A DNA stretch of 64,000 nucleotides from Branchiostoma lanceolatum (taxonomy: Eukaryota; Chordata; Leptocardii; Amphioxiformes; Branchiostomatidae): positions 29,748,958 through 29,812,957 of the forward strand of contig NC_089722.1 in the NCBI RefSeq assembly GCF_035083965.1, written 5' to 3'. A model generated the notes under the pieces. The model did not search any database, was not told the DNA's origin, and saw nothing but the letters and a program-made list of their open reading frames with translations. The position numbers were made by a program, and so were the translations under genes. Numbering within the stretch: the stretch's first letter is position 1; every line of letters starts with the position of its first letter. Below, piece after piece: positions 13,629 to 38,233 of this stretch.

Positions 13629-13698
13629 TCACGGTATGACGGTACCTGGTGCTACACTGAAGACGGCCCGGAGCCATGCGATGTTGTTCCTTGCAACG
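13629..13698 (+). pseudogene. kringle exon 3' fragment
   Basis: The frame reads [20 protein letters not shown], ending AACG before GTGAGT. This matches the end of the intact kringle exon at 25585-25827 on the other strand. The homology continues about 300 bp into the intron, for example GTTATATACGCGAACACC. It is a dispersed gene fragment with no other kringle exon near it. Confidence 0.8.
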
Positions 13699-14005
13699 GT
13701 GAGTCTGAAATTGACTACTGAACACCAATTCGTAATGCATGATATGTTATATACGCGAACACCTTGTGCTGATTGTACATATTGTTATTCTTTTATCTTG
13801 TATATCAGTTGAGTGTGCACGTTTGTACATGTTTTTGTACTGTTGATTTGAAGACTGTGTAATTCAGTCGGCTGTACATTGTCAAGAAGGTTGTACAGGC
13901 TGCAACGCTGTTTAAGTGTTTTAAGAATCTTTAAATAAACCATTATATGAAATTTGGCAGAATTTTCCTCCATGAATAGACATCTTTTACAGACCAGAAA
14001 TATAC

Positions 14006-18123: not shown

Positions 18124-19186
18124 TAATTGGTCACATTTATTTTTGTAGTCTTACATGTGAGCAGCCATCATACTAGTACAGGGTGATTCTGTAATTCTTT
18201 CTTGTAAATTTGCATATTAGTTGATTTGGTTCATGCTGAAAATCTTGATTTCCATGCGCTGTATTGATGTTGTCAGCAGGGCTAGCTCTTTATAACAAAC
18301 ACTGGCAAGTTACTGCTTAGCATATGTTTTGCACTTGTTTAATTTCCTGCTTCTGTCTTTCACAGCCAGACCAATGAAATAGATACAGCGCCTAAGGACA
18401 ATCTTCGTAGTGAAGATAAAAATGGATGGCTCAGTATGTTAGTGGAACTTTAGTAGATAATAGATAGATATACATCGTACAGACTTAAGGTTTACCAGGA
18501 CCAAGGAAGCTAACACAATCAACTTACAAAACTTCTGTATTTCTCAGCTAGTTGAGAACATTTCAATGTAACATTACGTGATATTCATGGCATTTCATAG
18601 GATACTGATACGGATATCTTATTAGCTAACGTACATATTATCTTGTTAAGTAACATATATATCTATTATTCATCATTAACATACATACTTATTAAGAAAT
18701 TAACCTAGATATACCACCACATGTTATTGTCTTACAGAAAAGAGCATACCTTCTAAGCGGCACATGTGCATTTTGTTATATCCTGCCGGCTGCCTTTCTG
18801 TAATACAGATTTTTTAAAGTCCTCATTCGGATGAGTTTTGACATTAAAGATATCAATACAGATCAAAGCTTACATGCTAACATTCCTTTTAGAACTCAAA
18901 ACAAATGCAAATACTCTAGTATGATAAGCTATAAAAGTCATTATCGAGAATTGCTTAAAACATTTCATTCTCATCTATCTAAATGAATGCTTTTGCCTCG
19001 GCATATTTTGCCTCCCATCAGACTACACATCATTTCTAAAACAACAGGAGCTAATTGATTCATTAGCATGCAACCTTGTCTTAACTTACTATCCTATTGA
19101 ACCATCTGAAATTGTCTTCCCTTCATTAACATATCCATTAAGAGTTTTGGTATAAAACCCAGTTCTACCAGATCCTTCTTTAGTCA
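18124..19186. other. intergenic, no gene seen
   Basis: AT-rich sequence between the rhodanese gene stop and the LINE-related remnant. No exon was recognised. Confidence 0.6.
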
Positions 19187-19216
19187 CTGACGAAAGATGG
19201 CGGATGCTATCTGAAA
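19187..19216 (+). ncRNA. hammerhead-like core in retroelement end
   Basis: CTGACGA, A, AGATGGC, GGAT, GCTATCT, GAAA. The two 7-nt arms pair fully, with one G-U. Compared with the copy at 51394, one pair has changed from C-G to U-A, a compensatory change. Confidence 0.5.
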
Positions 19217-19229
19217 CGTCTGACTGTTT

Positions 19230-19595
19230 CAAAATCTTATCCAGTTGCTTGAGTAATTATTTTTGGCGTATCTTATTACCTGGATGTCTAACCTTCATCA
19301 ACGTACACATCATTGTTTTCCTACAGCCTTTGCCTGTACTTTCTGTCACTATCGCGCATATGTCCATCCACTATCACAGGATGAGCAACACTTTGTAGTA
19401 GAATGTAGTTTATACATCAAAGAGAGAGCTGAGTTTTATAAACTAATGCAATGTAGGTTTCCCCATTTCATACACCTTAGCAACACAGAAAAGTTCATAT
19501 TTCTAATGGCTTTAGACAACCTCTTGATTATTAAGCACAACTGTACCTATGTTTACATCATTACTAAGAAGCGAGAAGAGGCCAAATCCGTGTAA
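19230..19595 (+). mobile_element. LINE 3' fragment
   Basis: The plus frame reads EQHFVVECSLYIKERAEFYK, then TEKFIFLMALDNLLIIKH, ending at 19595. This resembles the cysteine/histidine-containing C-terminus of LINE reverse transcriptase proteins. A similar fragment lies at 50815-51050. Confidence 0.6.
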
Positions 19596-19761
19596 TTATT
19601 ATTAGACTAGTGCTAGCTTGTCATTGTTTATAAGTATTTGCAAACTGTGACTTTTTCTGTCGTGACCTGTACTGAACCCAGTGGGTATGTGTGTGTACAA
19701 TTAGGTTCTTCATTCACTATCACTGATCGATTAAAAAGTTCTGGCGTCAGGTGAAAATGCC

Positions 19762-21366
19762 CTATATGCGACCAAAGTATAGGGTACAAGGAACTGCGAT
19801 GATGATGCCCACAACGTACAGCACAAGGAACAGCCTATCCAGAACATGAGCCAACAAAGCATAATCCGTGGTGTACTCATCTTCGCCGCTTGTCGCCTGC
19901 GCTAAAGCATCAATGCTGACAGCCAGTTTGTTAACGCTGGCCTCCAGACGGGACATGGCGGCCCCAGCTTCATTATTTGGTTTGATCTTTACCGATGAGG
20001 ACTTCCCAAGGTCGTCCTGCTCAAAGGCGTCGTTTGTGTAGGAACCGAACCTGCCCTTCTTCTTCGTGTAGACGCCGTCACTGGTAACACCGGCGGTACC
20101 GTCAAATGGATCATCATCGTTGTCCTTCAAATTCTTCGTCAGATCTCCCTTGAAAACCGCTCTGTTCAAATAACAAAAGTTGGGAACATGCATCACAAAT
20201 GACTATTACTTTTCAACATGGATCTAACATGGATCTAATCTTAAAGTACCTAGCAGCTTTAGCGAAAACTATAGAGATCATTATGTTTCTATATAACGCT
20301 ATTCGTTGAGCGCTGTCCTCATTACATGGTAAATGGCAACAAATACAAACACTAAACCTTCCACCGCTCTGTTGAAATTCAGGAAAAAGAGTTGAGTACA
20401 ACACAAATTTGTCCTACTCACAGAGACAGTAGCGAAAATCATGCACATATGATCATAATGGTTCTATAGAAACCTTAAAGTTTGCGTTTTGCATTGAGCG
20501 CTATACATCCTGAATACATGGTAAATAGCAACACATACAAACACTTAACCTTCCACATAGATGCATATGTATATGGTAGGTATACATACATTGCCAAGTA
20601 TCTCAGGAAGAATGTCCGAGCCCAGCCAGGCAGGGTCCCCTTCTTGTTGTGGATGCTGAGAACTAAGAGGGTCGTCAGCGTGAAGAGGCCCATCATACCC
20701 ATGGACACGATGATCAGGATAGCTGTTTGGGATGAACATGTAGAGGTATGTGTGGTTACATAGTGTGTATATTAAAAACTACATAATACATAACAACAGT
20801 ATGAAAACAACGAAGAAAGAAAACTATAAGTAATTATGCTTTGAATGATTGTATAGAGATATTTTTCATTGTAAAAGCACAGTCTTTCAAGGCTGTTCTG
20901 AATACAACACATGCAGTGTGACATGGGTTTAGCTGTCACATACACCTTTACAAGAGGGCTGTGCGTTTGCTAGAACAAATGTCGGGATAGGACCGGTCAT
21001 GTCTGGTCAGAAGGAGCTCACCAATGAAGGGCAGGGTTCCGTTCACGGGGAGGAATCCGGTAACGACGACTAGCGACACGACCATGGACAGCATCACGGT
21101 GACGCTGAAGGAGATGCGGTCCCCCTTCTCTATGGGCAGCAGGAACGTGATGGTCATCAGCACCACCAGGATGATGCAGGGAGAGATGGTTGTCGCCAGG
21201 TGATAGCGAGGGTCCCGCTGAAGCTTCACGATCAGGCAGGCGTCTTTGTTGTTGTTGACGGTAGACAGGGTGATGTGGCCGCCCCATTCCCCGTATTTGA
21301 TTGGCGCGGTGGTGTTGGTACATGTCAAGAAGTTTGGGTCATTGTTCCTCTTCGGCTGAGAACAGC
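19762..21366 (-). CDS. mosaic receptor: channel domain M1-M4 (three exons)
   Basis: 21366-21022 holds the pre-M1 region, M1 ([15 protein letters not shown]) and M2. 20722-20590 holds M3 ([20 protein letters not shown]). 20161-19762 holds the acidic intracellular loop and M4 ([20 protein letters not shown]), then TAG. The vicinal cysteines of nicotinic alpha subunits are absent in loop C. Confidence 0.85.
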
Positions 21367-24300
21367 CTGTAGGTACAAACAATGTCGCAATAGATAAAAA
21401 AGATATAGCGATTTAGCATCATTGAACGTTTCTGTGCAGTAACGTCCTCTGTCATGTGCTAATCATCTTGCGTTCCAAATCCGCAGACATTCATAGTTTC
21501 CACGGGAGCGGAACAAACTACAGAGGCGCCGTGAACAAAGGCCGGTCCGGGGCTGAGTGCCTCCCGTGTTCACGGGAGTACCTCTCACAGGTCACATAGT
21601 GTGGGTCTTAAAAAGGCGGAATACCTTTACAATTGTATGATAACAATGAATAAAGAACACTATCAGTATGCAAAACAGCACACTCTTTGCATACTTGCAT
21701 CTTTTATTTTCAGTAATTGTTAGTAGTACCTTATATTAGAAGGCATAAGGTAGATTACAGTAAGAGGGCAGTTCAATATCGATTTGGCCTGGCCCATTTC
21801 CAGTTATGTTAGGAGGCTGCACATTTATAATGATTTTTATCATGATAAGATACATCTCTATAGGTTACCTGTCTATTTTCAGTTCTGAAATATTGATATA
21901 TTATCTATTACAGCTGCTAGAGTGGTATGAAGTATGGTTGTAAAACCAGTTAGATTCAAAGCAGTCATCAAGGTCCTGAATGCGGCTTGTTCATTCAAAA
22001 AAGGTTTTTGCAGTTTTTGATAGATTCATTTTTCACAAACTAATAACGAACGAACGAAACCTACAATTTTTTTTCAAACATAGGGTGAACAGATGTCTGT
22101 GAACATTTGTGACCTTTCCCTTTGATACGTACCCACTTGGTAGTTTTCTCCGGCCGTCCAACAGATAGAACAGGTCATGTTGTCCTGGGGAAACAGGTAA
22201 GGGTCAAGCTCGCATGTAGTGGTGGTCAGCGTCTCTACTGTCCAGTGGACCTTGCCAGTGTTGTCCACCTTCAGCTCTACCTCAGGGAATCCACTGTACT
22301 GCGTGTCCGCACTGTTGGTAGATGATAACTTTATTGCGCAACAATTGTACAAGGTACAAAGTATGGCTGGTACATCACTACAGTTCTATATATATCTAAG
22401 GGCTAATCTACCTAAGAAAAGAGTGTATAGTATGAGTTTAGAAATAGTTCTTACAATCATTGGAGGAATTTCTATCGTCTAGACATTCTTTAATATATTT
22501 TCCAATGTATACAATGCAAGGATTGTCACATATCAATATGCAACAGGGGCTTAACCTTAGTCTTTCTATTAATAGTCAACAACTTAGAAATGTTACAAAG
22601 ACTGCTGGCGAATACAGCCATGGAACAGATGTACCTACTTTGTTTTCAGTATCAGGCTGGGCATCCAAAGGAGACTTGCAGCGATAGAAATATCCGTGAT
22701 ACCACCATAGTCTCCAGTGTGCCAGATTAAACGTCTATCTTTCCACGTCTGAAAGACAATAGAGATATCATTGTCAGCCGAATTATGCTTCATATGATAC
22801 AACTGCATTGAAAGAATACAGCTATCTTGTCTCAAAGCAGAGGAGTGGGTCCAGCTGGTTTTTGACGGGTTTTTAGGTGTTTTGTCGGACTTTCTACCTT
22901 GTCATGTTCTTTTTGACACAAAGTTGAAAGCCCGACAAAAACACCTAAAAACACGCCAAAAACCAGCCGGACCCACTCCTCTGCTTGGAAAGTAACAGTT
23001 ATCCAGGAGTCTGTAATATGTTGTGCAATATCCATGTATCAAGTTGAAAAGACTATTATACTTTCACGATTAAGTACAAGCTATCATGATAATTTCCTAT
23101 CGTCTTACGACATGTACGAGAAATTTCGAAAAGAGAACCATACTAGTATATGTATTGAACATACGTATTCCGTTTTGACGTCAGAGATTATGATTTCCTC
23201 CCGTTCGTCCTAACAAAAATGAAGAGGGTACAAACATGATCAGATTAGTTTCAGCTATGCAATGAGAGTTTTACTCGTTCGCTTGGATTTTAACCAAATC
23301 TTCCCCGTTTTCCCAATGCCCACCATCGGACAAACGTATAGGGCTCATCATCATCATTCGTCCGGATTTACCGGTGAGGTTCAATAGATGATACCATGGT
23401 GGTCTACGGTGGTAGCTGTATTCGTGCTTCTTCACAAGTACCAAAACTATCCATCGTACACAAGGTACGTTGAGCCATCAATAGGATATAACCATCTCGC
23501 GCAGTAACTACATGTATTCATAATATCTAACGGTGCGAAGTTTCAGATTACACGCTTACCAAATTCACGACGTTGACGATGTAGGCCTGGACGCCGAGGC
23601 GTATAAACCTGCTGGGAGGCAGCGCCTTGTTGTACACGTCAGGACTGAGCAGATCATTCACTAGTCGTGCATGGTGGTCCACTGCGGAGAAGGGACACGG
23701 AAAAGAGCCGTCACTTCCGCCCCCTCCAAATTATTGTGGATTGTTAAGTTGATATTGAAAAAAACCAAACATGGCCTACACAGAAGATTTTTGGCTGGGC
23801 TTTTTGGGGGCTAAAAATATGTTATTTTTTTTATTGTAACCGGGCGACTGTGAAGATAGGTTACAATAAGAACTGTGGTACAACTAGAGTTCCACGATCT
23901 CATACCTTGGTGAAATGATGTTAACCTTTTCGAGTGATGTATCATAAATGCTTCTCATTGATTATTCAAATACGGTGATGATGCAAATAAGGTCACCACG
24001 TGCATAAATACTATCAGTTGTTCATATTCTCCACTCAAATAACAACATATAAAAGTCTTATCTGAGCAAAGACGCGAGAATTTCATCATCAATTATGTAA
24101 ATAAGACATTGATTTGCATGATATATGTCTAATGATTGTCTCTTTGACTTTCAAATGCTGGAAGTATCGAATTCCCATCATTTACTGTCTAAAGCCAAAA
24201 CCCCAGCCAAAAAGCCAGCTACGGAGGCTTGACATGCAAAGGTCTTACCGATGAGCAAAACCTACCTGCACAGTCGGGAACAACAGAGGGAGACCACCTT

Positions 24301-27300
24301 CCTATGAGTCCAGTGCCGTTACTGACACACTGAGCCCTGTTTAAGAGATTGTCGTCCTGGACTATGTAGCCTTTGTCACAGATGAACGTGATCCACTCGC
24401 CCAGAGGGTAGAAGTTCAGAAGCGGTCTCCTCTGGCCGAAATCAGGCTTCCCCGGGTCAAGGCAGCCTCTGTCTGCAAGAAGAAAGAGATTTTTTTATTT
24501 GAAAAATATCTTTAACATGCAACATAAAAAAGCAACACACACATAGTGATGACGCGCTCAGGGAAACCCGCTTATTTAAGATACATCACGAAACACGAGA
24601 AACAAAACACGTGACGAAGTATGAAACACTAACAGTACGGGAACAATACAGAAACCGAGGTGCTAAAAAAAGAGATTTTTTGATGAGTCAATAAAGTTAA
24701 TTGTTTTTTAATCAGGTCGTAGCAAACGTCTGCTACTTCAGCTTTCCCTGGATGGTTTATTTGTTTATTTGTTTGTTTATTTCTCTAAAACAGCCTTGTT
24801 GCTGCCTTTGCGCTGAATTGTCCGGTCTGTTTATAATTTTACATATTGGCATACCACATAATGACGGAAAACATTGTCATATCAAAAAACTTTCTAAAGG
24901 TACTACATGCGCATCGTAATTGCAAATATAAACGGTAGTAATTAACTAAAACGCTATTGAGTTAAAATCTTTAAGTGCTGCACAAAATCTTTAAGTGCTA
25001 CAGAAAATGATGCCCCGAGAGTTAAGTCAGACATTGGTGTTGATGCATTGCACTATGGCGCCGCTAGGTGTGACCATACTTAAGTAGTTTCAGCACAACA
25101 CATATTCTAAAGTTGATAATGGTCTGTAAAACATGTCTATTCATGGAGCAAATGTCTGAACTGCCAAATTTCAGACTCACCGTTGCAAGGAACAACATCG
25201 CATAGCTCTGAACTGCCATTTTTCATATAGTGGATTATTTCCATACTACTACACCATATTTTACAAGATAGACTAATTAGCCTAATAGAATGTTACCAGT
25301 GAATGCCATACTCTGTACCTTGTACAATTGTTGTGCAAAAAAGTTATTCATTTATTTATTTAAAGATTCAAACAAGAAAATTAAAACAGCCTCGCAGCCG
25401 GTGCAACCTTCTTGACAACGTACAGCCGGCTGAATTACACTTAAAAATTAATCAACAGTACAAACATGTACAAACGAGCACACTCAACTGATATAAAGAT
25501 AAAAGAATAACAATATGTACAATCAGCAATAGGTGTTCGCGTATATAACATATTATACATGACGAGTTTCAGTTTCAGACTCACCGTTGCAAGGAACAAT
25601 ATCGCATGGCTCCGGGCCGTCTTCAGTGTAGCACCAGGGCATGAACCATCCGCGCAGCGGGTCGGGGTTGGGGTTTCGGCAGTAGTTCTCCTGCAGGTTG
25701 GCCCAGGGGTACTGTGTGATGTAGTATCTGTTGTCGTCTGTGTCCCACCGGAGGCACTCAGCCCCGGACCGGCCTTTGTTCACGGCGCCTCTGTAGTTTG
25801 TTCCGCTCCCGTGGAAACATTGAATGTCTGCGGATTTGGAACGCAAGATGATTAGCAAGTGACAGAGGACGTTACTGCACAGAAACGTTCAATGATGCTT
25901 AATCGCTATATATTTTTTATTTATTAAATGACATTTAATTACAGGACTTGAAGACAAAATATAGTGCCACAGGAAGTCACCAGGTGGTCCATAAACGAAC
26001 GTGTCCTTCATTTATGGACACCGACACCTACCTACATACCTAATTCCATGAAGATACATCCACAATTTCTCAAGTTACGCTGTCCAGACATATAACGTCA
26101 CACAATCAACTGGCACAGAAAATCTAATCTTCTTGTGGAAGGTAAAAAAAAACAGAGAAGAAAGAGGCTCTACAGATGTTGCAATTGAGGTTGACATATA
26201 AGGCATGATAACTACTGAATCACACATGATAAGTGTTGTTGGCTCACCTGTAGCTGTATCTTCTGTCTCTGACGTCAGGGCCTTGGTGTTGTAACAATCT
26301 GAATGCGGGAAAATGTCGCAGGACAGAACCGCCGGCCAGGAACCGTTCCCCAGACACGACGCCCGGACCTCTTCGCACCAAGACCGACAGGGCAGCTGCT
26401 GCCGTAGGAGACTGAAACAAAAATAAAAGTTTCGTTAGTTACGTTCTCTCAGAGCTCAGAATGCCTCTTGTTTTCCCTCAAAGTGGATGCAAACAATTCT
26501 GTTCCTTTCTTATTGTGTTGATTCTGAACACCCTTCAGAAAGCAGAGCCCCTATCGCTCGATTCGTTAGCTATCAATCAATCAGGTTACGCCTCACATCG
26601 TTACTTGAGGTTCAGAACATACCGCCAAATTGTGCCAAATAAGAATAGCTCATTAATCTTTCGTGAGCAACTGTCAGTAACGTCACCAGAGCCGTGCCTA
26701 CCGGGGCTAAAGAGCAGGGCCCCTACGCGAGCGAGTTAACGAATCGAGCGATAGGGGCTCTGCTTTCAGGAGGGTGATTCTGAATGGCGCGGTAACATTC
26801 GTCGAAGGTCTTCTTGATCATACGATTTGGATGTGGCACATATTTAAAGTAGGATGTTACAGAACCATCCTCCGACAAGGATCATCTATGATAGCTTTTG
26901 CGGTAAAAAGACAGCTGGATTCTGTAAGTGTAAGACACATGCAAAAGATCACCCTCAATTTACAATTGTACAACAATCGCACGACGAATGCACCCTCATT
27001 AAATCAGGACCGACCCCTATCGCTCCACGTTAGCCCGCTCGCGTAGGAGCCCTGATCTTCAGCGCCGGTAGACATGGTTCTGGCGACGTCACCACCAAAA
27101 CAGCTTCAGCCAATCAGAGGGTTTGCTAAACCTCATCTGAAGCAAAAGCACAAAGGACGCTGGGAAGCTATCAACCAATCAGGTTACGTCTCACATCGTT
27201 ACTTTAGGTCCAGAACAAATTAACCGCAAAATAAGAATAGCTCATTAAGCAACTGTCAGTAACGGCGCCAGAACCATGTCTACCGGTGCTGAAGATCAGG

Positions 27301-30300
27301 GCCCCTACGCGAGCGAGCTAACGTGGAGCGATATGTGGTCCCGATTTAATGAAGGTAGACGAATGTGACCTTATCGGTTTCGTACCTTTCGTTACAACTC
27401 GGCATGATGACCGCGCATACTAGGTTGCTGACCTGGGGGTGACACGCGGACGAAGCTAAGCCGTGTAGAGCCCCTCCTGGTACCGTGGAGTTCAGGACCT
27501 CCTCAACCGTGTTGTGGTGCAGGGGGTTAGGGAGCGTCATCATGTCGTACTCCGTCCCTTTACACAGCGTAAACTCGGGAGGGATCTCCTCACATTCTGG
27601 AATACAACATTGTTGAGTGAGTAGTAATAATTTTCCACTCACAATTGTGGAATTTTCCACGAGTGAGTAGTAATAATTTTCCACTCACAATTGTGGAATT
27701 TTCCACCCACAATTGTGGAGTGGGTTAGGGAGCGTCACCATGTCGCACTCCGTCCCTTTACACAACGTAAACTCAGGAGGACTCTCCTAACACTCTGGAC
27801 ACCCCCATGAAACTCCTTATGGGCCGTACCCGGAAATATGGGCCGTACCCTGTAACAACTGGCCGTAACGTTACCCAATGGCGGACATCGCCCGGCCACA
27901 GTGCGTAGTCGCGTGAAAGTCGCGTCTAGATACCCTGTAACGCAACGATACACAATCACACATAGCCTATGCTCTGGCAAACATTCGAATTCCTGGCCAC
28001 CTCTCTGCAGAGTGTCGTTGTACAAATCGCCCCCAATTTCGAGAACACTCACGCAAGCTGTGGCGACTTTCACGCGACTACGCACTATGGCCGGGCGATG
28101 TCCGCCATTGGGTACGGCCCATAGTTACAGGGTACGGCCCATATTTCCGGGTACGGCCCATAATGTTACCGGGTACGGCCCATACTTCCAGTTACGGCCC
28201 ATATTTTTACCGGGTACGGCCCACATTTCTGGGTACGGCCCATAAGGAGTTTCATAGGGGTGCTGGAATTCAACACCGATTAGTGAGTGACGCACGAGGT
28301 GATATACTGGTCTCAGTGGTCCTACTTCGACAAACAGAAAGTAACCAACTACGTGGTTGGAAGAGCATAACATGACAACCCTTGCGTCTGTCATCTATAC
28401 CAACATTGTTTTATATTTTCTCGTTTGGTGTTGGAATTTTATGGATGTTTCACGACGATGATGCTTGAACGCAAGTCTGTACCTGGGATGTAAGTGATTC
28501 TAAATTTGTGTACGGTATCAAGAGGGTAAGTAAAAAAATCCACTCACCACAATGTCTCGCCAACATCGTTTTAGATTTTCTCATTTATACTCATATAACG
28601 TTAGTGTTGTAATTCTGCTGTACGTTTCACGATGATTATGCTTGAACGTATGTCGGTACCTGGGATGTAACTGATTCTGAATATGGTGTACAGTATTAAA
28701 GTAAAAAACAATCTACTTACCACAATGTCTCTCGTCAGACCTGTCGCTACAGTCCACCTCTCCGTTACACCGCTGCCACGACTTGATACACGTCACTCCA
28801 TCCGCACAACGGAACTGGCCAACGGTACAGGTAATGAAGACTAGTACAAAACATATCAGTTGGGTTAACTTTCATTTCAGGAGTACGAGTACAGAGTGGG
28901 CATAGCTCAAGGAGGTTACATAGGAAGTACAAACGTGTATGAGAAATCTATCAGGTATTCAGGTATACAACTGCGCACCAAGCAGGTAGGCAGATCGATG
29001 TTTACTTGTGGACAAAAGCAAAGATCAGAGCCTGTTGTTTTATAACGTTATATGCATTGAAATTTTGTCCAAACTGCAGGTCATATGTAGACAACATACA
29101 GAGCAACACACAAGCCTTTCCACTAGACGGCGATCTCTGAGCGACTTTGCAGCGACCAAAAGTTGTATTTGTGTGACTCTTGATTTCTTAATTGGAATAT
29201 GATGCAAGATGCAAAAGTATAATCTAAAAGACAAAAAACACGCAAAAATCGTTTTTTTAAATCGTTCTTTATCTGAAATTAATTAAGCGATCGGTCAAAT
29301 CATTGGAAAGGAATTGTTACTGCCAATCAACTAATCACAATATATGAGGAACCACACCTTTCTCTACAGACGTGTACGTGGCGTTGAATCCTCGCTCCGC
29401 TATCGAACGGTCGGAGGTGAAGAGGATGTTCATGAAGTGACTCGCTGACGTCACGACGCCCGGGTTGGTACCTCCTGTGTAACGACCTGAAAATGTGTGG
29501 GAGATATTACTGCACTGATTTCAAGATCTGGCGGGCAAGATGATAATAACTTTATTGCTCAAAAATTGTTTATTGCTCTGATATCAGAAAAGATACTGAG
29601 ATCCAGGGTTAAGCCCTGCCAGATTGTAACATGATATTATAGATATTGCGGATGTAAGGTTTATTTTGTATTTCTATTTTGTAGTTTGTATTTGACGGTA
29701 CAAAAATAATGAAACAATTGCATATAAAGCTTATCTAATTAAGGGTTAATGACCTGCCCGGGGTGTATATGGTGTCATAACGCCTGGCCATGTGCTATAA
29801 CCACCGGTTTTATGAGGTGGTTATAACACATGGCCAGGCGTTATGAAATCATAAACACCGAGGAATAGGCGGGTCATTAACGTTATTATCATATAGCCTA
29901 TCCAACCAGCTGACCCATATAAGAGAAGACAATTCCTGTATGACGCATCTGTCCTTTTTGTACAGAAGATGATAGATTTCATTTTGAAAACCAAAATTTC
30001 CACAGATAATTTTTAATAACATTGTTATCTTAGCATGTCAAATCTTTTTCAAATCTATTCTATTATCTATTATCACCATTCCTCCCTGCTGGGTGTCTGA
30101 ATACTGTTTTCTTTCCGCCCGTTTAGATTTGACTTGTATTGAAATGGTTTATTCTAATTTGTCATATGCTAACAAAAAGATAACCTCCCCCTCTACGTAA
30201 TGGAACGGTCGAACGGTTGTGTTATGGCGTCATAACAAATGGGCAATGGAGGCTTCTGATTGGTCGACGCCATCTGGCTATGTGATAATATAGCAATAAA

Positions 30301-33300
30301 GCAATAAAGCTTATCTAATATAGCACACAACGTATGGTAATTCAAATAATGATTCTGAAAACATATCCTTTCCACAAAAGACGTGGTATAGGATGAAACT
30401 ATATACTTGTACAGCCTTTTGAAGAACCTCTAATGCCTAGGCACTTACTACAGTTACAGGAAAAACGTAAAACAAGACGATTACCGAGTGAGAATTTGCG
30501 GTTTGTTGTGTCTCCCTGGAACACTTCTACGTGGTCATACCCATCCTCGAGGTTGAAGTCCCCAAAGACCAGTCGGACAGCTTTCTTAAAGTCGACTCTG
30601 ATGCGGTACCGGCATCGCTCCCCGTTAGGATAAGCAGCCGGGTAGAAAGGGGAGCTGAGCCGGCCGCTCTCCGTCATGAAGGCCCCAGATGGACACCCTA
30701 TTGGAAGATTGCCAGTATCTTATTGGTCATTACGAACAACAAATGCTCTATCGTCTTGATTGTATACAAGATAAGTTTCCTAGTTTTCGATAGCACAGAA
30801 ATAAATTCGTATACCTTATGGAACTAGACAAACCATTTACTATAAGCTCCATTTGTTCATTCATCTACAGCTGTCTTATAAAAGTGAGAAGAAACTGAAC
30901 CTGTACATACATAACATAACTAGTCTTTAAATGTAGTAAGATTGCACGTTTTATCATTGTAATTATACTTCTACTTTATCACCATGACATATACTTCGCT
31001 TGTAAGAGCATAAACGTACAATAAAGGTCTTTCATTCATTGATTCTTAATACACCAATTTCTTAATGTCTGTAGTATGTACATCCGTTTGACACTAACTG
31101 ACTATTTGCATCGTCGGTTGATAAGAAAATGTTGAGTGATTGGCATTTGCACAAAAGAGGCAAAAACGTGCATAGTTCGTCAATAAAATGATGCTGGCAG
31201 CCAACTTTCGATATGTGAGCAAATACTTGTTCTATTACAATAGCCACCCCTCCAGAAAAGCACACATGTGTAAATGCATCCCACTTGTGTCACTGGCAGA
31301 AAATGTAAATGCATTGCAAATTGATCGGCTATCTTACCAATACAACGCCAAATGCTTGCTATATGCTTTTCATATAACGATTGTTTGCAGCCGTCTGTCT
31401 TCATAACCTCACCACCAGAAATAGATCACACATGTATACATACATCCCACTGGCACTTCTGACATGCTGAACTGAGGCAGGTAGATACGTTGATATATCG
31501 ATGGGTTATCTAATGCCTAGGTCACATTTCCAAAGCGGGGCCCGGTCGGGCAGCTTGCGGGAACGAAAAATATTAATATATAAAAGACAAAAGAAAGACA
31601 CAAAACGGGAAAAATGGCTCCTAACCATAAATTGTGTGTTTTCTTGATATGCACTTTTTATTTTTCGTTTTCACAAACAGCCCGGCCGGGCCCCGGCTTG
31701 GAAATGTGACCCTAGCATAACCAATACGCCACAAATGGTTGTTCATACCTATATCCACTGCCGTGTAGGTGGCATTGAACCCAACAGCTGTCCCAGTACT
31801 GTCTGATGTGAAGACGACCGTCATGGCGTTAGCGGTGGAGTATATGGTGTCCAGGGTCAGCAGACCAGTGTTCCGAACCCCTGTAATGTAAACCGGAAGC
31901 AAAATGTGTCTACGTCTTTGAATTCTTGATAAAGCTGCCTTTCACACACTTGTTGGCTGTCAGTTTGCCGTAATCCTTATTAGTAAAGTTGCAAAGTATG
32001 GGCATTTTATCGGCAGCTAACAAAAAGACAACTTGCTTCGTCGGATTTCAGAAGGTCTTAACTCGTGATATTCCTTCCTTAGGTACTCAAACGGTGGTCC
32101 GTTATTGTACATTGTATCCTGAATTGAAATTGTGAAATTAGTGAATGTTCGTGTAGTGTTTACGGACATTCTGCAACAATGTGAGTAACGTTAACGGATA
32201 CCCATAATGTCGTCTTTCGCACTTTTCAATCTTTTTCTTCTATTTAGCCAGCCTCGTCTGAAGTAAACCAGAGTCCTCACCTATTTGAGCTTGCCTGTCA
32301 GTGGAGTTTCCGTCATAGATGTCCAAGAAGTCCGAACCTCTCTCAAGGTCAAGCACGGTGAAGGTCAGCCGAATCCGTTTGTCTGGCTCGACCGCGATGT
32401 CGTACCGACATGTCTGGTCGTTTGGGTAGTTCTCAGGGTAGCTCGGACTGGTGAAAACCCCGCTTGCTCCTGTTAGCAGCACCGGTAGGCATCCTATAGG
32501 GGAACAACGTCAGCAATAGACCTCTTTCCAGTTACGGCGGCCATTTTGAATTCCCAGAGGTCAGCTCGGGGTCATGCACCAAAACGAGGCAGTCCCTGAC
32601 TCAGATCCTACTATAACCCTGGGTAATGCCAGTTATACCATCTTCGGTTGTACATTTCGCCCCTCTAAGATGAAATAATCTAATATATGTGCCTTTCATA
32701 TGTAGAAAATATTGTTGTGGACATTTTGACTTATTTTTGGCTAAATTTTTATTCGTTTTCCACAGTTTTTGATGGGTAACTTAAGGACAGTGTCTACATT
32801 TGTATATCCTCCTTAATATCTTTTTACTAGTAGGATTGATACAAGACATGGAAAGACTAGCTGCAGACTGGCATCCTTGTGGGTAAAAAATTAGAACACA
32901 ATTTGCAGTTGTTCTGAGAATTTCTAGATGCCGGGATCCGTTCTGCAAACAAAGCTGTATGGGGTGATTGGGGTCCAATGCAGAACTCAGTGCAGTGGGA
33001 AAGGTGGGGTACAGACTGGTTGCGTTCTTTGTATATTTGTATGTCAGTTTGCTCCAATGATAGTTTTGGTAGCATACACTTCCACAAGTTGAGTCCAGAT
33101 AATTGTGGGCTGAAATTTAGCAGATCTATCCTGTGATTTTGATGATTTCTCAATGCTAAGATCGGCATGGCAAAGAAACGCTATACCCGTAAATGTTATC
33201 GCCAGTGGGACAGGGATCGACCCCAGTCTCTACCAAACTAACTACGCTGGCAACTAGTGATGGGAACGCATCTGTGATTTACCCCGCCTTCCCCACTGAG

Positions 33301-35523
33301 TTCTGCATTGGACTGGACCGGTCGACCCCATAGAGCTTAGTGCAGTGCAGACCGGATCTTGGTATCTAGAACTTGTCGTAACAACTGCCAATTGTCTTCT
33401 AATTTTTTTACCCACAAGAATGCCAGCCTGCAGCTAGTCTTTCCAGGTCTTGTATTAATCCTACTACATATAGTTAAGATATTAAGGAGGATACATGGTA
33501 GAGACTGTCCTTACGTTACCCATCAAAAACTGTGGAAAACGAATAAAAATTTAGCCAAAAATAAGTCAAAATGTCCACAACAATATTTTCTACATATGAA
33601 AGGCACATACATGTATATTAGATTATTTCATCTTAGAGGGGCGAAATGTACAACCGGAGATGGTATAACTGGCATTACCCAGGGTTATAGTAGGATCTGA
33701 GTCAGGGACTGCCTCGTTTTGGTGCATGACCCCGAGCTGACCCCTGGGAATTCAAAATGGCCGCCGTAACTGGAAAGAGGTCTATTGTCATGTCATAGAT
33801 CAACAGAATTTCATATGGTGAAACTGTGATATAGAATATTCAGTCAGCCTGTGTATCCCGTGGTATCCCACCCTATGTATTTACCGGTGGCTATCAATAT
33901 ATCTACGCAGGGTGGTAATGTTTTTGACCAATGTCGTACGTTTTTGTTCATTAGAGAGTAAAGAAAATATTCGCCTGGTTTATGATATTTTTTGGGACAA
34001 GCAGCCAACGCATTCAATTTTCGACGTTTTCGACCAGTGTCGTTTAGGTTCATTGAAGAATAAAGGCAATTCGTCCGTTATGACAGTTGTTTTAACAGCT
34101 GTTGGGGGAAAAGCAGCCATCGTTGCTGCGTTTAAATGAGCTCAATTCAAAGACAATTCGTTTGTTTTAACATAGGTTTTACACACCTGGATCCAATGTT
34201 ATGTAGGAGGCGTTAAACCCCGAGGCCGTCCCTGCCCTGTCCGAAGTGAACACGACCGTCATGACGTTACCTGTAGATTTGATAGGGTCGACGCTCACCT
34301 GACCTGTGTACCGTTCTCCTGTAAATAAAAACAACAACATTTTGATGGCAAACACACCGCGAATAACTTCCTTCCGTGCATTTGACGTTTTTTCTACGTA
34401 GTTAGCCATTTTACATACTGGATACAAGCATAAAACTTTGCCCCGCCCGTCCCCGAATTTAAAAAAAAAATCTTAGGACATTGAAGAAGAGTGACCGGTG
34501 TCACTCGAAATGTCCGGAGGTAATCTCCTTACCTTGTCCAGTTTTAGACATTGATTTGTCTTTAGAGATTGAGTTGTAGAGATTGATATTGTTCACCGAG
34601 ATGTCTAACCTTTATGAACGTAAAATAATTGTTAACTTCCATTAACATCAATCAGCCGGGTTACATAAGTCCGCCACTTTGAAAAACAGTGGGTTTGAGA
34701 GATCTTTAGTGCAGAACCCCCTAGGTATGCACAGTTAAATTAAGATATGCATTGTACTGAGCGGGACGTTGGCTTGGAGATCTGTTTGGACGTATATTTC
34801 AAGGTGGCGGAATTATGTATACATGTACCCTGATGGAATTATATTAGCAGATGTTACCTCTTCCATTTTGGTCGTTTCCGTCATAGACCTCCACGTAGTC
34901 CAGGTCTCTCTCAACGTTGAAGTCAGAAAATGCTAACCGGATCCTCTGACTCCGCTGAACCACGATCTCGTACCGACATCTCTGGTTGCTCGGGTAGTTG
35001 TCCGGATAGTTGGGACTGCTGAATGTCCCAGTTTCCGCTGTCAGTAGAACTGGTCGGCACGCTAGTAGTGGGGAAGGACGTTTTTTGTTACCACAACATA
35101 GCGATAGATATGAAGAATCATAGGCATGCATAGATGTAGCATCTTTTTTAGCACACATATGCCAGCCAATTTGAAACATATTCCATCTTTAAATATATAT
35201 ATAACTTATGACATGGAGCATTAGCATTCATTCACCTACAAACACGTTCCAACTCTAGTCATTAAACACCTAACATTTGGATGAACAGCCGGCCCTTCGG
35301 CCAATCTAGATCGAATTGAACCCCAAAACAAATAGTTGCGATTACTTTTGTTTCTATAGTTACAAGCTACACGTTGATACAATTGTTTGAAATTGAGGAC
35401 GTATGAGCATATCGTTCAAAATAAGATCGAACGAACATTACCTTGTTGCCGTTGCCGTTGCCCAGACACGGAGACTGTCAACAGGACGTGCGCCAGCCCA
35501 GCAAAACTAATGAGGCGCCACAT
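19762..35523 (-). CDS. mosaic Cys-loop receptor: SP-CUBx3-LDLa-FZ-kringle-CCP-LGIC
   Basis: Nineteen exons in one phase-consistent frame: 35523-35442, 35061-34858, 34318-34187, 32493-32281, 31880-31749, 30697-30485, 29486-29358, 28840-28721, 27596-27386, 26411-26248, 25827-25585, 24472-24266, 23681-23560, 23209-23165, 22748-22639, 22311-22133, 21366-21022, 20722-20590, 20161-19762. They sum to 3384 nt, 1127 residues. Order: signal peptide 1-27, three CUBs 28-368, LDLa 369-408, FZ 409-533, kringle 534-614, CCP 615-683, then ligand-binding domain, M1-M3, an intracellular loop of about 110 residues, and M4. The 45-nt and 110-nt exons are hallmarks of nicotinic receptor genes. M2 ([18 protein letters not shown]) has Asp at -1', Leu at 9' and no PAR motif, predicting cation selectivity. 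Ligand contacts are not conserved, so the ligand is unknown. I know of no described receptor with this architecture, but could not search. Confidence 0.85.
21405..21570 (+). pseudogene. inverted copy of the kringle exon 5' half with upstream intron
   Basis: The plus strand carries the same intron text and acceptor (CGTTCCAAATCCGCAG) as upstream of the real kringle exon. Exon-like sequence follows, including TTCCACGGGAGCGGAACAAA. The first kringle Cys codon is changed to AGT and similarity stops after about 75 nt. It lies in the intron between 21366 and 22133. Confidence 0.8.
22133..23681 (-). CDS. mosaic receptor: Cys-loop ligand-binding domain (four exons)
   Basis: 23681-23560 ([19 protein letters not shown]), 23209-23165 (45 nt), 22748-22639 (110 nt, [10 protein letters not shown]) and 22311-22133, containing the Cys-loop [15 protein letters not shown] with 13 residues between cysteines. 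The loop A aspartate is replaced by Ser. The loop B Trp-Tyr region reads CWTAGENYQ. Confidence 0.85.
22833..22988. mobile_element. foldback element, AAGCAGAGG ends (copy 1)
   Basis: Arms of about 60 bp: AAAGCAGAGGAGTGGGTCCA is matched in inverse by the segment ending CCTCTGCTTGG, including TTTTTAGGTGTTTT/AAAACACCTAAAAA. It lies within an intron of the mosaic receptor. Confidence 0.85.
24266..24472 (-). CDS. mosaic receptor: CCP/sushi domain
   Basis: 207 nt, phase 1-1, with four cysteines and the [11 protein letters not shown] ending typical of complement control modules. It ends in phase 1 directly joining the receptor part, so the fusion is in frame. Confidence 0.9.
25168..25206 (-). pseudogene. 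kringle exon terminal fragment
   Basis: The minus strand repeats the last ~30 nt of the kringle exon and its donor (GATGTTGTTCCTTGCAACGG then TGAGTCTG) about 400 bp downstream of the real exon. Confidence 0.7.
25585..25827 (-). CDS. mosaic receptor: kringle domain
   Basis: 243 nt, one exon, phase 1-1, with six cysteines and kringle landmarks [21 protein letters not shown] and DIVPC. Fragments of this exon are scattered at 13629, 21487 and 25168. Confidence 0.9.
26248..27596 (-). CDS. mosaic receptor: Frizzled-type cysteine-rich domain (two exons)
   Basis: 27596-27386 ([20 protein letters not shown] to VIMPSC) and 26411-26248 ([14 protein letters not shown] to HSDC) join in phase 2 and contain the ten FZ cysteines in order. 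The intron carries two hAT-type MITEs. Confidence 0.85.
26529..26776. mobile_element. hAT-type MITE, copy 1
   Basis: Ends are CACCCTTC and its inverse, followed by GAAAGCAGAGCCCCTATCGC on both sides. The exact 8-bp target duplication ATTCTGAA lies at 26521-26528 and 26777-26784. It sits in the FZ-splitting intron. Confidence 0.9.
26991..27357. mobile_element. hAT-type MITE, copy 2
   Basis: Ends are CACCCTCATTAAATC and its inverse. The exact 8-bp target duplication GACGAATG lies at 26983-26990 and 27358-27365. It starts 20 nt inside the intron after the first FZ exon. Confidence 0.9.
27610..27716. repeat. two-copy tandem repeat, ~54 bp
   Basis: GAGTGAGTAGTAATAATTTT followed by CCACTCACAATTGTGGAATT is repeated twice, in the intron between the LDLa and FZ exons. 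Confidence 0.8.
27802..28260. mobile_element. foldback element with GGGTACGGCCCATA subrepeats
   Basis: The left end CCCCATGAAACTCCTTATGG is matched in inverse at the right end (CCATAAGGAGTTTCATAGGG). The right arm holds about seven copies of GGGTACGGCCCATA. The inner arms contain CGACTTTCACGCGACTACGC and its inverse. 459 bp, no ORF. Confidence 0.85.
28721..28840 (-). CDS. mosaic receptor: LDL-receptor class A domain
   Basis: 120 nt, phase 1-1: six cysteines with the calcium-binding DCSDRSDE end. A single, complete LDLa module. Confidence 0.9.
29358..30697 (-). CDS. mosaic receptor: CUB3 (two exons)
   Basis: 30697-30485 encodes [20 protein letters not shown] through DHVEVFQGD. 29486-29358 encodes [20 protein letters not shown]. 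Both are phase 1-1. Confidence 0.85.
29745..29881. mobile_element. hairpin MITE
   Basis: GTTAATGACCTGCCC is matched in inverse by GGGTCATTAAC at the ends. The inner arms CATAACGCCTGGCCATGTG/CACATGGCCAGGCGTTATG are perfect. It lies between the CUB3 exons and the LDLa region. Confidence 0.85.
31749..32493 (-). CDS. mosaic receptor: CUB2 (two exons)
   Basis: 32493-32281 encodes [20 protein letters not shown] through FLDIYDGNS. 31880-31749 encodes [20 protein letters not shown]. The exon sizes 213 and 132 nt match CUB3 first half and CUB1 second half, pointing to tandem module duplication. Confidence 0.85.
32515..33786. mobile_element. 1.27-kb foldback element with ~430-bp arms
   Basis: AATAGACCTCTTTCCAGTTA is matched in inverse by TAACTGGAAAGAGGTCTATT. 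The arms continue through CATTTTGACTTATTTTTGGC and the region around 32870/33420. The central loop of about 400 bp has no transposase. It lies in the intron between CUB1 and CUB2. Confidence 0.9.
34187..34318 (-). CDS. mosaic receptor: CUB1 second half
   Basis: 132 nt, phase 1-1, encoding [20 protein letters not shown]. The usual third CUB cysteine is absent (ERYTG in place of the RYCG type). Confidence 0.85.
34858..35523 (-). CDS. mosaic receptor: signal peptide and CUB1 first half
   Basis: Exon 35523-35442 starts ATG ([20 protein letters not shown]), a cleavable signal peptide. It ends in phase 1, joining 35061-34858, which encodes [20 protein letters not shown] through YVEVYDGN. The start is supported by a hydrophobic core followed by a polar GQRQRQQ stretch and the in-phase join to the first CUB. 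Confidence 0.85.
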
Positions 35524-38233
35524 CAGGACTTCGATGCTAAACAATATGGAACGAAATAGTTGTCAGGATAAATGTTGAAATCTGCTCAAAAACAAACTAG
35601 GCGCCACATAAGGACTTTGATACCCGCCCTAACAAATAATACGATATAAACAGGACATAATCAGGCTAGATGTTGATAAGCTATTTAAGCGTTAAGTAAT
35701 GTTGGAGGTCGCTAACTTTAGAAACTTGTCATATGTTCTTTTCTAAATACTGTAGTCAAACTGTAAACATTTTTTTCACATTCATTTCTTCTGAACCAGC
35801 CTAACAACAAAACAAAAACTGTAAACATTACTAACTCCATCAAGGATGAACTATTGTTGAAGAACATACAGATCCGATCAGAGATTCCTAATGCCACAAC
35901 AAAAGAGTTAAGTACGTTACAATGGGCTTCTATAACACGACCGCCCGAACGTGTGTATCGAGAGACGAGCGAGTTTTGCCCGCAGCTACTTTGTGTAATT
36001 ACCGTAGATGGCCTCGAATGAACCCTACCGTAACGTCAGAGCAAAACAAATTTAGTAATCCACCGGAAATCCCTGTTTGAGTCATGCGAACAATTTTGCA
36101 GCAAACAACAGGCTAGATTTCAGACCAAGTAAGATTAAGGTGCATTTTCGTCAAAATGAAATATATGCTTCTTCTGAATAAAAAAAGAATATTTGTACAC
36201 AACCAAGTATTCTATTCAACCGACGTTTTGGTGACCGTCTGTCGCGTTCTTCAGGGCAATTCTGACTGGTTCACTTTCACTGCAGCTATAGGTGTCACCG
36301 AAACATCGGTTGAATAAAACACTTGGTTGTGTACAAAAAGCCTTTTAATCAGCGACTTCCCAACCTGATGATACTTTTCACAGGTATGCTTCTTGTTGAA
36401 AAAGAAAACAAGGTTGGAACGGATTTAAGACGCCCGTTCTGCACAGTGGTTATGTAGGTCCTTGGTCCCATGGCCTTGGAATTAAGTAGACCTACCAGAG
36501 TGGTAAGAGAGTCTTATCTTACATGTCTTGTCTTCAGTCTTCGTACATGTTAATCGGAAGACAAACTCACAGACGAGTAGATCTTTCTCACGCCAAAACT
36601 GATACCAAGGCGACATGACTTAATCCTAACCGTCTTTACACTTGTCCCTTAACATATCTACACATCAAAAGTCTTGGGGTGACACAGCATCCTACTTGTG
36701 AATCAACATAACAACTTACCTGCACGTCGTTCTCAGAAATGAAGATCGTCTGTGACGTTCCAGTGGCGGAGTAAGTCTTTCTGTGATACCAGAACACAGC
36801 AGAACGTTGTTGAATTTTCGAGTTAAACTCAAAGTCAAAAACTGTCCGCGTCGTTCTGCGCCAGGAAGTAACTAATTACCTCCGATTGCCGAAGCAAGTA
36901 ACGTTAGACACTAACGGAAGCAAACACGGTGTTATGATTGAACAAGTTATGCCTCTCTGATCACAAACTTGGCAAACCGGTTTCGCGTCACTAGTTACTT
37001 CAACCAATGGGCCTGAGACATCCTCAAAGTGCCAAGACCGGGCAAATTCAAACATGTCTTCTGTTAGATGTATATACCCTTCCAACACTGACTCCGGTTT
37101 TCTAGCTACTCTTCGTAGAGTTCTGTGTAGATATGTTACACAGTTACACAGTTTTCCCAGTCAATATCAAACATCATAAAAGATTCATGATCAAAGCACA
37201 GTGTTTCAGTTACACTGAGAATGATATCAGCATGGATTTGTTTTTCCTGATGAGGACTTTCAGATTATTCTTTCATTTATAACGACTCTTATCATTCGGA
37301 ATCAATGCAAAAAGTACAAATATATTCAGTCATACAGATTAAGTAGCAAATAAATTTATTTTCAATTCTTTTTTATGTACACCAGAGCAAACACAAAAGG
37401 ACACTTTACTGCCATTCTTTCATTCAGTCTATCACCTGTCACTCACTACAAATAATGGGCATCAAACAGATCGATGTAGATATATATAGATGATATGATC
37501 ATGACTTAAGGTACTTTGACAAGATAAGGGGTATATCTAAAAAATGCAAATGGCATGTAGAATTATTGGCATTAAACAGGCGTCGATCTGTAGATCATTA
37601 ATCAGTAGATCACAGATGCAAAGCACCGCACCTCTTTGAATCCGATTACAAGTGCAAATTAAACATTCTTGACTTACATATAACAATTCAAAGTGACTTA
37701 TCGAGAAAGATTAGCAACATATTCTCTCACATGGCAAGCGACAAGATCGAAGGCATCCTGGTGTCAAGAAATTTTCTTTTCTTGAATAGTCAAATGATCA
37801 AAGTAGCCCACAAGACTGTCTGACTTTTAAAAGTTATGTACAACGTTTCGTAATGTGTGATAATCCTTAGTGTACCATTGGTGCAAACATTTGCTTCAGT
37901 ATGGTGCCAAAACTTAACCATACTAGTGTTTTTCTGCAAACAGTATTAACTTGATGACATGATACTGATTGTTCATCAGAAAAAGAAAAAAAAGCACATA
38001 AAAGCACCCCTGGAAAGGTAAAGAAAACTATATTTGCTGACAATTATCGCGAAAATACCATTTTCTTTCCTTTTCTAAGGGTGCTTTTTGGTGTTCGTTT
38101 TTTTTCTGATGCACAAACTTTTATAGAGCTGAAGCTTGCACCCACACCACGGATCTTTTCAGAACGTGGCGACTTCTCAAAGCAGCGCGTCGAAGGACCA
38201 GACATCACTAGGACCGGTGACTCTAAGGCAAAC
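35524..38233. other. intergenic between mosaic receptor start and TSP1-WAP gene end
   Basis: This would contain the receptor promoter. No motif is certain. It holds a Penelope-like remnant at about 36190-36350 and a hairpin element at about 37974-38113 (arms TCAGAAAAAGAAAAAAAAGC and its near inverse). No exon seen. Confidence 0.6.

What the first reader, a model, noticed from the sequence alone, without database searches (positions are those of the whole stretch)
19762..35523. A Cys-loop receptor fused to a CUB-CUB-CUB-LDLa-FZ-kringle-CCP ectodomain
Nineteen exons with matching AG/GT borders and phases give one 1127-residue frame from a signal peptide through eight extracellular modules into a complete ligand-gated channel. 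The CCP exon ends in phase 1 and the first ligand-binding exon begins with the complementary two bases, so the fusion is not a juxtaposition of two genes. Cys-loop subunits normally have only a signal peptide before the ligand-binding domain. I know of no described receptor with this layout; novelty is not verified.
Basis: partly seen in the sequence, partly recalled or inferred. Interest (0 to 1): 0.95.

Follow-up and report, generated by a model that had tools for sequence, protein, structure and literature searches.

The report
Nicotinic-type channel with grafted adhesion modules
An animal gene appears to join a nerve-type ion channel subunit to a long outer arm built of CUB, LDL-receptor, Frizzled, kringle and sushi modules, which, if made as one protein, would give a receptor its own built-in anchoring or sensing arm.

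Summary
Nineteen exons on the minus strand (35523..19762) close into one 1127-residue frame: signal peptide, three CUB, LDLa, Frizzled, kringle and CCP modules (seven, not eight, before the ligand-binding domain), then a complete Cys-loop subunit. The receptor half is nicotinic-like and keeps a 45-nt exon like that of insect nAChR alpha6. All module borders, the join included, are phase 1. In the 584-bp intron at the join no start exon combines a hydrophobic leader with a usable phase-1 donor.

Limits: the phase match is weak evidence, no transcript was available, that intron holds one AATAAA, and false domain combinations have been reported in lancelet gene models.

The pore reads as cation-selective, but one of five acetylcholine-box aromatics is kept and loop C lacks its Cys pair. 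My best reading is an accessory nicotinic-type subunit with an extracellular anchoring arm; CUB/LDLa, CCP and Frizzled-type proteins act separately on nicotinic receptors elsewhere (LEV-10, LEV-9, CAM-1, MuSK). That role is inferred. Species and relatives could not be checked: the protein search was off.

The parts
35442..35523 (-). exon 1: start codon and signal peptide (cleavage near residue 21 is my inference)
   Evidence: best 10-mer Kyte-Doolittle mean 2.11
34858..35061 (-). exon 2: CUB1 first part
34187..34318 (-). exon 3: CUB1 second part
32281..32493 (-). exon 4: CUB2 first part
31749..31880 (-). exon 5: CUB2 second part
30485..30697 (-). exon 6: CUB3 first part
29358..29486 (-). exon 7: CUB3 second part
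28721..28840 (-). exon 8: LDLa module, six cysteines
27386..27596 (-). exon 9: Frizzled CRD first part
26248..26411 (-). exon 10: Frizzled CRD second part and linker
   Evidence: ten cysteines in the whole CRD with CX8CX6C and CX3CX6C spacings (pattern quoted)
25585..25827 (-). exon 11: kringle, six cysteines
24266..24472 (-). exon 12: CCP/sushi, four cysteines, ends in phase 1
23682..24265 (-). intron 12, 584 bp, the join between ectodomain and receptor; no start exon with both a hydrophobic leader and a usable phase-1 donor; one AATAAA at 23835 (0.5 expected)
23560..23681 (-). exon 13: start of ligand-binding domain (nAChR exon 2 position; inferred)
23165..23209 (-). exon 14: 45 nt, phase 0-0, the size of insect nAChR alpha6 exon 3
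22639..22748 (-). exon 15: 110 nt; loop A region
22133..22311 (-). exon 16: Cys-loop C809-C823 and loop B Trp827
21022..21366 (-). exon 17: loop C region, M1, M2 pore and the start of M3
20590..20722 (-). exon 18: rest of M3 and start of intracellular loop
19762..20161 (-). exon 19: intracellular loop, M4, stop codon

Best explanation
One gene encodes a nicotinic-type Cys-loop subunit whose N-terminus is extended by about 660 residues of extracellular modules (CUB x3, LDLa, FZ, kringle, CCP). Shown: the exons, the closed frame, the modules, the pore and Cys-loop motifs. Inferred: it arose when class 1-1 module exons came to lie at the phase-1 boundary between the signal-peptide exon and the first ligand-binding exon of an nAChR gene. 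The subunit keeps a cation-type pore but has lost four of the five acetylcholine-box aromatics and the loop C cysteine pair, so it most likely joins heteropentamers as an accessory, non-agonist-binding subunit. Its arm, projecting from the top of the ligand-binding domain, would anchor or cluster the receptor by binding extracellular partners, doing in cis what separate CUB/LDLa, CCP or Frizzled-domain proteins do for nicotinic receptors in other animals.
For: Gene model and phases. Domain hits. LDLa, FZ, kringle and CCP have their usual 6, 10, 6 and 4 cysteines. The receptor part best matches muscle-type nAChR alpha (E 1.2e-36) in the PDB; the best 60 of 198 hits are all nicotinic or 5-HT3 chains. 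Cys-loop with 13 residues between cysteines; pore E915 (-4'), D918 (-1'), R919 (0'), S921 (2'), T925 (6'), L928 (9'), read from the alignment and positions. Aromatic box from the same alignment: Y93->K774, W55 position->K736, W149->W827 kept; segment 861-884 has no Tyr and no vicinal Cys. 45-nt exon 14 equals exon 3 of insect alpha6 (PMC5111602, passages); introns 1-3 are shared by all vertebrate nAChR genes (PMC6354393, passages). Class 1-1 shuffling and phase-1 signal-peptide introns (PMC8001218, passages). No start exon with both a leader and a usable donor in intron 12. Functional analogy: LEV-10 (CUB/LDLa) and LEV-9 (CCP) cluster, and CAM-1/ROR and MuSK act on, nicotinic receptors.
Against: No transcript or second species. 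Each between-module junction, including CCP-LBD, rests on splice sites and phase only. Intron 12 carries one AATAAA (0.5 expected) and reading through exon 12 gives a stop after 15 codons, while the first AATAAA/ATTAAA after the receptor's own stop codon lies 1418 bases on. Intron 12 also has one stretch with a hydrophobic 10-mer (1.96, near the gene's own 2.11) and, separately, one strong phase-1 donor (9.1), but not together. Each CUB has two cysteines, where many CUBs have four (recalled). False domain combinations are argued for in lancelet models. The FZ resembles sizzled/Frizzled-8 and the kringle plasminogen/HGF; no ROR or MuSK chain is among the best 60 of 121 PDB hits, so the ROR/MuSK link is one of module type, not shown descent. 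No test of clustering was possible. In LEV-10 the LDLa is dispensable.
Confidence: 0.5

Rival explanations
1. Two adjacent genes read as one: a secreted CUB-LDLa-FZ-kringle-CCP protein and a divergent nAChR subunit next to it.
For: False domain combinations are argued for in lancelet gene models (PMC4967905, passages). Phase 1 at the join is expected for both partners anyway. One AATAAA in intron 12, a stop 15 codons past exon 12, and no AATAAA/ATTAAA nearer than 1418 bases after the receptor's stop.
Against: The receptor half then lacks a signal peptide: exon 13 has no in-frame ATG upstream before a stop, and of the 12 ATG-to-phase-1-GT pairs in intron 12 the two with a hydrophobic leader share a very poor donor (-4.2) and the one with a good donor (9.1) encodes 13 non-hydrophobic residues. 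Over introns 1-12 the filter gives two overlapping hits, both in intron 8 with a weak donor (4.2), against one on the antisense strand. 584 bp would have to hold a 3' end, promoter and first exon.
Confidence: 0.17
2. Protein-gated channel: the arm is the sensor, for example FZ binding a Wnt-like ligand, and gates a homomeric pore whose own acetylcholine site is lost.
For: One of five acetylcholine-box aromatics is kept and the loop C Cys pair is missing (alignment, positions). FZ has ten cysteines with standard spacing. Some bacterial pLGICs carry small-molecule-binding domains at the same place (PMC549065, passages).
Against: No pLGIC gated through such modules is known to me (recalled). Nothing shows coupling between the arm and the LBD. 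An accessory subunit could lose the box too.
Confidence: 0.18
3. One locus, two products: splicing through intron 12 gives the fused receptor, while retention or polyadenylation in intron 12 gives a secreted ectodomain.
For: Read-through of exon 12 adds 15 residues and a stop; an AATAAA lies at 23835, 430 bp past the exon 12 donor.
Against: The hexamer is expected 0.5 times in 584 bp, so it may be chance; most introns give a stop soon.
Confidence: 0.1
4. A recent, non-functional assembly in an actively rearranging locus.
For: Fragment copies of the kringle and FZ exons in and near the gene show local duplication.
Against: The chain itself is open over 1127 codons with whole modules, conserved motifs and GC3 of 66.8%; the FZ copy, by contrast, carries a stop and the inverted kringle copy is truncated after 82 nt of the exon.
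Confidence: 0.05

Closest known systems
Nicotinic acetylcholine receptor subunits (Cys-loop / pLGIC superfamily)
   Same: LBD with Cys-loop, four membrane helices, cation-type pore, 45-nt exon 3 size, best PDB match
   Different: Seven extra modules before the LBD; four of five ACh-box aromatics and the loop C Cys pair missing; four LBD cysteines beyond the Cys-loop (826, 837, 851, 879)
Bacterial pLGICs with N-terminal PBP-I or Cache/MCP-N domains (Tasneem et al., PMC549065, passages)
   Same: Extra domains placed between signal peptide and LBD
   Different: Small-molecule-binding domains of another kind, in prokaryotes
LEV-10 (5 CUB + LDLa) and LEV-9 (CCP) of C. elegans (PMC9083331, passages)
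   Same: Same module types, needed for nicotinic receptor clustering
   Different: Separate proteins, not covalently part of the receptor; order and number differ
NETO/SOL CUB-containing auxiliary proteins (PMC9083331, passages)
   Same: CUB ectodomains, in NETO and SOL-2 with LDLa, serving ligand-gated channels
   Different: Separate transmembrane proteins, described for glutamate receptors
ROR / CAM-1 / MuSK receptor kinases
   Same: FZ next to kringle as in ROR2 (PMC6938638, passages); CAM-1 and MuSK act on nicotinic receptor localisation (PMC4237178, passages)
   Different: No kinase here; no ROR or MuSK chain among the 60 listed of 121 PDB hits

Membership tests
Cys-loop (pLGIC) receptor subunit | Neur_chan_LBD plus Neur_chan_memb above curated cut-offs | tested here: met
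   91.5 and 61.7 bits against 26 and 28.1
Cys-loop (pLGIC) receptor subunit | Cys-loop with 13 residues between the two Cys and a [YF]PxD motif | tested here: met
   C809..C823 with FPQD inside; motif, spacing recalled
Cys-loop (pLGIC) receptor subunit | four hydrophobic helices | tested here: met
   peaks 896-914, 920-938, 949-967, 1105-1123
nAChR, cation-selective | E-[R/K] just before M2 | tested here: inconclusive
   D-R (D918, R919): acidic and cation-like, but D for E (motif)
nAChR alpha subunit | vicinal Cys pair and tyrosines in loop C | tested here: not met
   segment 861-884 has one Cys and no Tyr
nAChR, ACh-binding | aromatic box (alpha1 Y93, W149, Y190, Y198; complementary W55) | tested here: not met
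   1 of 5 kept (W827); from the phmmer alignment, which is poor around loop C; residue roles recalled
nAChR gene structure | 45-nt exon 3 | tested here: met
   exon 14 is 45 nt, as exon 3 of insect alpha6 (PMC5111602)
nAChR gene structure | 110-nt exon 4 and phases 1/0/0/2 of the first introns | tested here: inconclusive
   exon 15 is 110 nt and the phases are 1/0/0/2; the vertebrate values are recalled, not checked
Class 1-1 exon-shuffled modular protein | modules bounded by phase-1 introns | tested here: met
   8 of 8 borders of the seven modules are phase 1
Animal Cys-loop receptor, stereotyped architecture | only a signal peptide before the LBD | tested here: not met
   seven modules intervene in the gene model
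Single expressed fusion protein | a transcript joining exons 12 and 13 | not testable with these tools
ROR/MuSK-derived FZ-kringle | closest sequence relatives are ROR or MuSK | tested here: inconclusive
   listed PDB hits are plasminogen, HGF, prothrombin, apolipoprotein(a) and sizzled/sFRP3/Frizzled-8; 61 of 121 hits not shown, and whether ROR or MuSK FZ-kringle chains are in that library was not checked

The most novel reading that the evidence does not exclude
A nicotinic receptor subunit that carries its own synaptic organiser: one polypeptide merges the CUB/LDLa, CCP and Frizzled-kringle module types that elsewhere sit in separate proteins acting on nicotinic receptors, so that the receptor anchors itself, or is switched by an extracellular protein ligand, through up to five covalent arms.
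Probability: 0.3. Interest if true: 0.92.

Novelty: new variant of a known kind. Interest (0 to 1): 0.76.

Why it matters
Animal Cys-loop receptors were described as having a stereotyped architecture, and combinations with other domains were said to rest on genome evidence only (PMC549065; PMC4795631). A vetted fusion of a nicotinic-type subunit with CUB, LDLa, FZ, kringle and CCP modules would show that exon shuffling can reach this channel family in animals. It would also give a single-molecule test of whether extracellular CUB/CCP/FZ modules are sufficient to cluster or gate nicotinic receptors, a task that other animals give to separate proteins.

Tried and rejected
Phase agreement as proof of fusion: rejected as weak. 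ROR/MuSK descent of the FZ-kringle pair: not supported. A hidden start exon for the receptor: 14 ATGs in intron 12, five of them with one or more phase-1 GTs (12 pairs); 0 of 12 pairs combine a hydrophobic leader with a usable donor. The two overlapping hits in intron 8 have a weak donor (4.2 by my small PWM), against one hit in the antisense control. The bacterial promoter/terminator scan of the join does not apply to animals and is not used. NCBIfam gave TIGR00860 and NF033918 below their cut-offs and adds nothing. Other receptor copies: tblastn of the receptor part against the window showed no second locus, only two chance-level hits outside its exons. Splice-site ranks come from 18 sites, and several acceptors of the model score poorly (for instance those of exons 7, 8 and 9), so they neither prove nor disprove exons. 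Organism: not shown; a lancelet is a guess from 41% GC and class 1-1 exons.

Literature: all 10 searches used. Searches found 0 papers; listed were 2 of 2, 20 of 98 (15), 20 of 92 (23), 19 of 19 (24), 3 of 3 (27), 12 of 24 (35), 9 of 9 (36) and 15 of 69 (43); none of the 15 listed held Neur_chan_LBD. Papers were seen as passages (PMC4795631, of which also section 15 in full; PMC3534327, PMC4967905, PMC4284660, PMC2792709, PMC5111602, PMC8001218, PMC549065, PMC9083331, PMC4237178, PMC6938638, PMC6354393, PMC6526094) or as abstract and outline (PMC3927609). PMC3534327, PMC2792709, PMC6526094 and PMC3927609 gave nothing I rely on.

Full report
What is there. I read the minus strand of 19001-37500 and rebuilt the gene. 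Nineteen exons from 35523 to 19762 splice with GT..AG at all 18 introns into one frame of 1127 residues. The phases at the borders of the ectodomain modules are 1 in 8 of 8 cases (signal peptide-CUB1, CUB1-CUB2, CUB2-CUB3, CUB3-LDLa, LDLa-FZ, FZ-kringle, kringle-CCP, CCP-LBD). Each CUB is itself split by a phase-1 intron, and FZ by a phase-2 intron. Pfam finds three CUB stretches, LDLa, Fz, Kringle, Neur_chan_LBD and Neur_chan_memb above their cut-offs; Sushi is found above its cut-off on exon 12 alone but was not listed at 1e-3 for the whole protein. Against the PDB at E up to 10, exon 12 has 30 hits, the best being complement factor H at 9.8e-05. The 32 ectodomain cysteines divide 2, 2, 2, 6, 10, 6, 4 over the seven modules. 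LDLa, FZ, kringle and CCP thus have their usual sets; each CUB has two, where many have four (recalled). The FZ spacings 8, 6, 3, 6 fit the pattern quoted in PMC6938638. Exons are GC-rich (54.6%, GC3 66.8%) against introns (39.5%).

The receptor half. Against the PDB it matches nicotinic alpha subunits best (E 1.2e-36; 198 distinct sequences matched, the 60 shown all nicotinic or 5-HT3). It has the Cys-loop (C809-C823), four hydrophobic helices and, from the alignment, a pore with E915, D918, R919, S921, T925 and L928 at -4', -1', 0', 2', 6' and 9' (prime numbering recalled). Tasneem et al. give E-[R/K] for cation channels; D-R is a conservative departure, so cation selectivity is likely, not shown. 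The agonist site is degenerate: alpha1 Y93 is K774, the W55 position is K736, W149 is kept as W827, and the stretch of loop C (861-884) has no tyrosine and no cysteine pair. That is one of five box residues (roles recalled). The alignment is poor around loop C, but the absence of Tyr and of vicinal Cys in that stretch does not depend on it. Four further cysteines (826, 837, 851, 879) lie in the LBD, possibly two more disulphides.

One gene or two. For one gene: upstream of exon 13 the frame runs 16 codons back to a stop without ATG. Intron 12 holds 14 ATGs; five have phase-1 GTs, 12 pairs in all. The two pairs with a hydrophobic leader (10-mer 1.96, against 2.11 in the gene's own) share a donor scoring -4.2; the one pair with a good donor (9.1) encodes 13 non-hydrophobic residues. 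Over introns 1-12 the filter gives two overlapping hits, both in intron 8 with a weak donor, against one on the antisense strand of the same 9792 bases. The intron is of usual size for the gene (584; median 528; range 299-1693). Its donor (CAG/GTAGGT, 7.8) is among the better ones; its acceptor (6.2) is middling. Against: there is no transcript support; one AATAAA is present with 0.5 expected; read-through of exon 12 meets a stop after 15 codons; and after the receptor's stop codon the first AATAAA/ATTAAA is 1418 bases away. Banyai and Patthy argued that apparent new domain combinations in lancelets reflect gene-prediction errors (PMC4967905, passages), while Huang et al. argued for very active, phase 1-1 biased exon shuffling there (PMC4284660, passages). 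I put the single-gene reading at about 0.8.

How it may have arisen. The receptor half keeps family exon structure: exon 14 is 45 nt, as exon 3 of insect nAChR alpha6 (PMC5111602, passages), and the first three introns are shared by all vertebrate nAChR genes (PMC6354393, passages). From recall, the 110-nt size of exon 15 and the phases 1/0/0/2 also agree with vertebrate genes. What is missing is the receptor's own signal-peptide exon, and phase-1 introns are in excess near signal-peptide cleavage sites (PMC8001218, passages). Class 1-1 modules placed at that border, with one signal peptide serving the whole, explain the layout simply; this is inference. The locus shows exon copying: an inverted copy of the first 82 nt of the kringle exon with 98 nt of its upstream intron, 172 of 180 bases identical, sits in intron 16; a partial tandem copy of the start of FZ exon 9 has a stop as its second full codon; copies of the end of the kringle exon lie within intron 11 and at 13645-13996.

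What it probably does. A subunit with a cation-type pore but without an acetylcholine box on either face fits an accessory position in a heteropentamer. The N-terminus of the LBD lies at the top of the receptor (established structure, recalled), so the arm would project into the extracellular space. In C. elegans, CUB/LDLa protein LEV-10 and CCP protein LEV-9 are needed to cluster levamisole receptors, and SOL and NETO proteins serve glutamate receptors (PMC9083331, passages). CAM-1, a ROR kinase with a Frizzled-like CRD, is needed for the synaptic localisation of another nicotinic receptor, and MuSK binds Wnts (PMC4237178, passages). I therefore prefer a built-in anchoring arm (0.5), with protein gating (0.18) and two genes (0.17) as the main rivals. 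The ROR/MuSK comparison is by module type only; the listed PDB hits point to plasminogen/HGF and sizzled/Frizzled-8.

Comparison and novelty. Tasneem et al. call known members stereotyped and report N-terminal fusions in prokaryotes, unlike animals (PMC549065, passages); Jaiteh et al. note that associations with other domains are evidenced at genome level only (PMC4795631, section 15). Seven searches of the open-access library showed no such receptor among the papers listed, several lists being cut. Protein databases could not be searched, so an annotated homologue may well exist. I rate it a new variant of a known kind.

Surroundings. Of 10 long ORFs tested, one gave a Pfam hit, a fibrinogen C-terminal domain at 5.6-6.1 kb, minus. 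Of 10 further stretches picked by codon score, nine passed a cut-off: cytochrome P450 on the same strand as the gene (8.1-9.4 kb), TSP1 repeats (1.4-3.3 kb, plus), AhpC-TSA_2 (50.1-51.3 kb, minus) and WAP (39.2-39.4 kb, minus); a rhodanese-like stretch at 17.1 kb scored below its cut-off. On the same strand after the WAP exon, an exon with a hydrophobic segment and a PPPYTP tail ends with a stop near 38.23 kb; that the two belong to one gene is not shown.

Noticed in passing
21389-21568 (+) against 25746-25925 (-): Inverted copy, 172 of 180 bases identical, of the 5' part of the kringle exon with its upstream intron, placed in intron 16, 22 bp before exon 17.
   Followed up: partly
27715-27799 (-): Partial tandem copy (88%) of the start of FZ exon 9 with a stop in the exon frame.
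   Followed up: yes
13645-13996 (+) and 25167-25208: Copies of the 3' end of the kringle exon with intron 11 sequence (83-84%) and a short copy (95%) of the exon end inside intron 11.
   Followed up: partly
32514-33787: Foldback element in intron 3: about 0.5-kb inverted arms, 89% alike.
   Followed up: no
26521-27356 and 38806-39184: Family of related repeats in intron 9 of the gene and next to the upstream WAP exon (78-93%).
   Followed up: no
38234-39391 (-) and 47190-47363 (-): Upstream on the same strand a WAP exon, then an exon with a hydrophobic segment and a PPPYTP tail; a similar hydrophobic/PPAYTP stretch at 47.2 kb.
   Followed up: partly
8071-9446 (-): Cytochrome P450 exons downstream on the same strand.
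   Followed up: no
40701-41274: Tandem array of an 8-base unit, about 70 copies.
   Followed up: no
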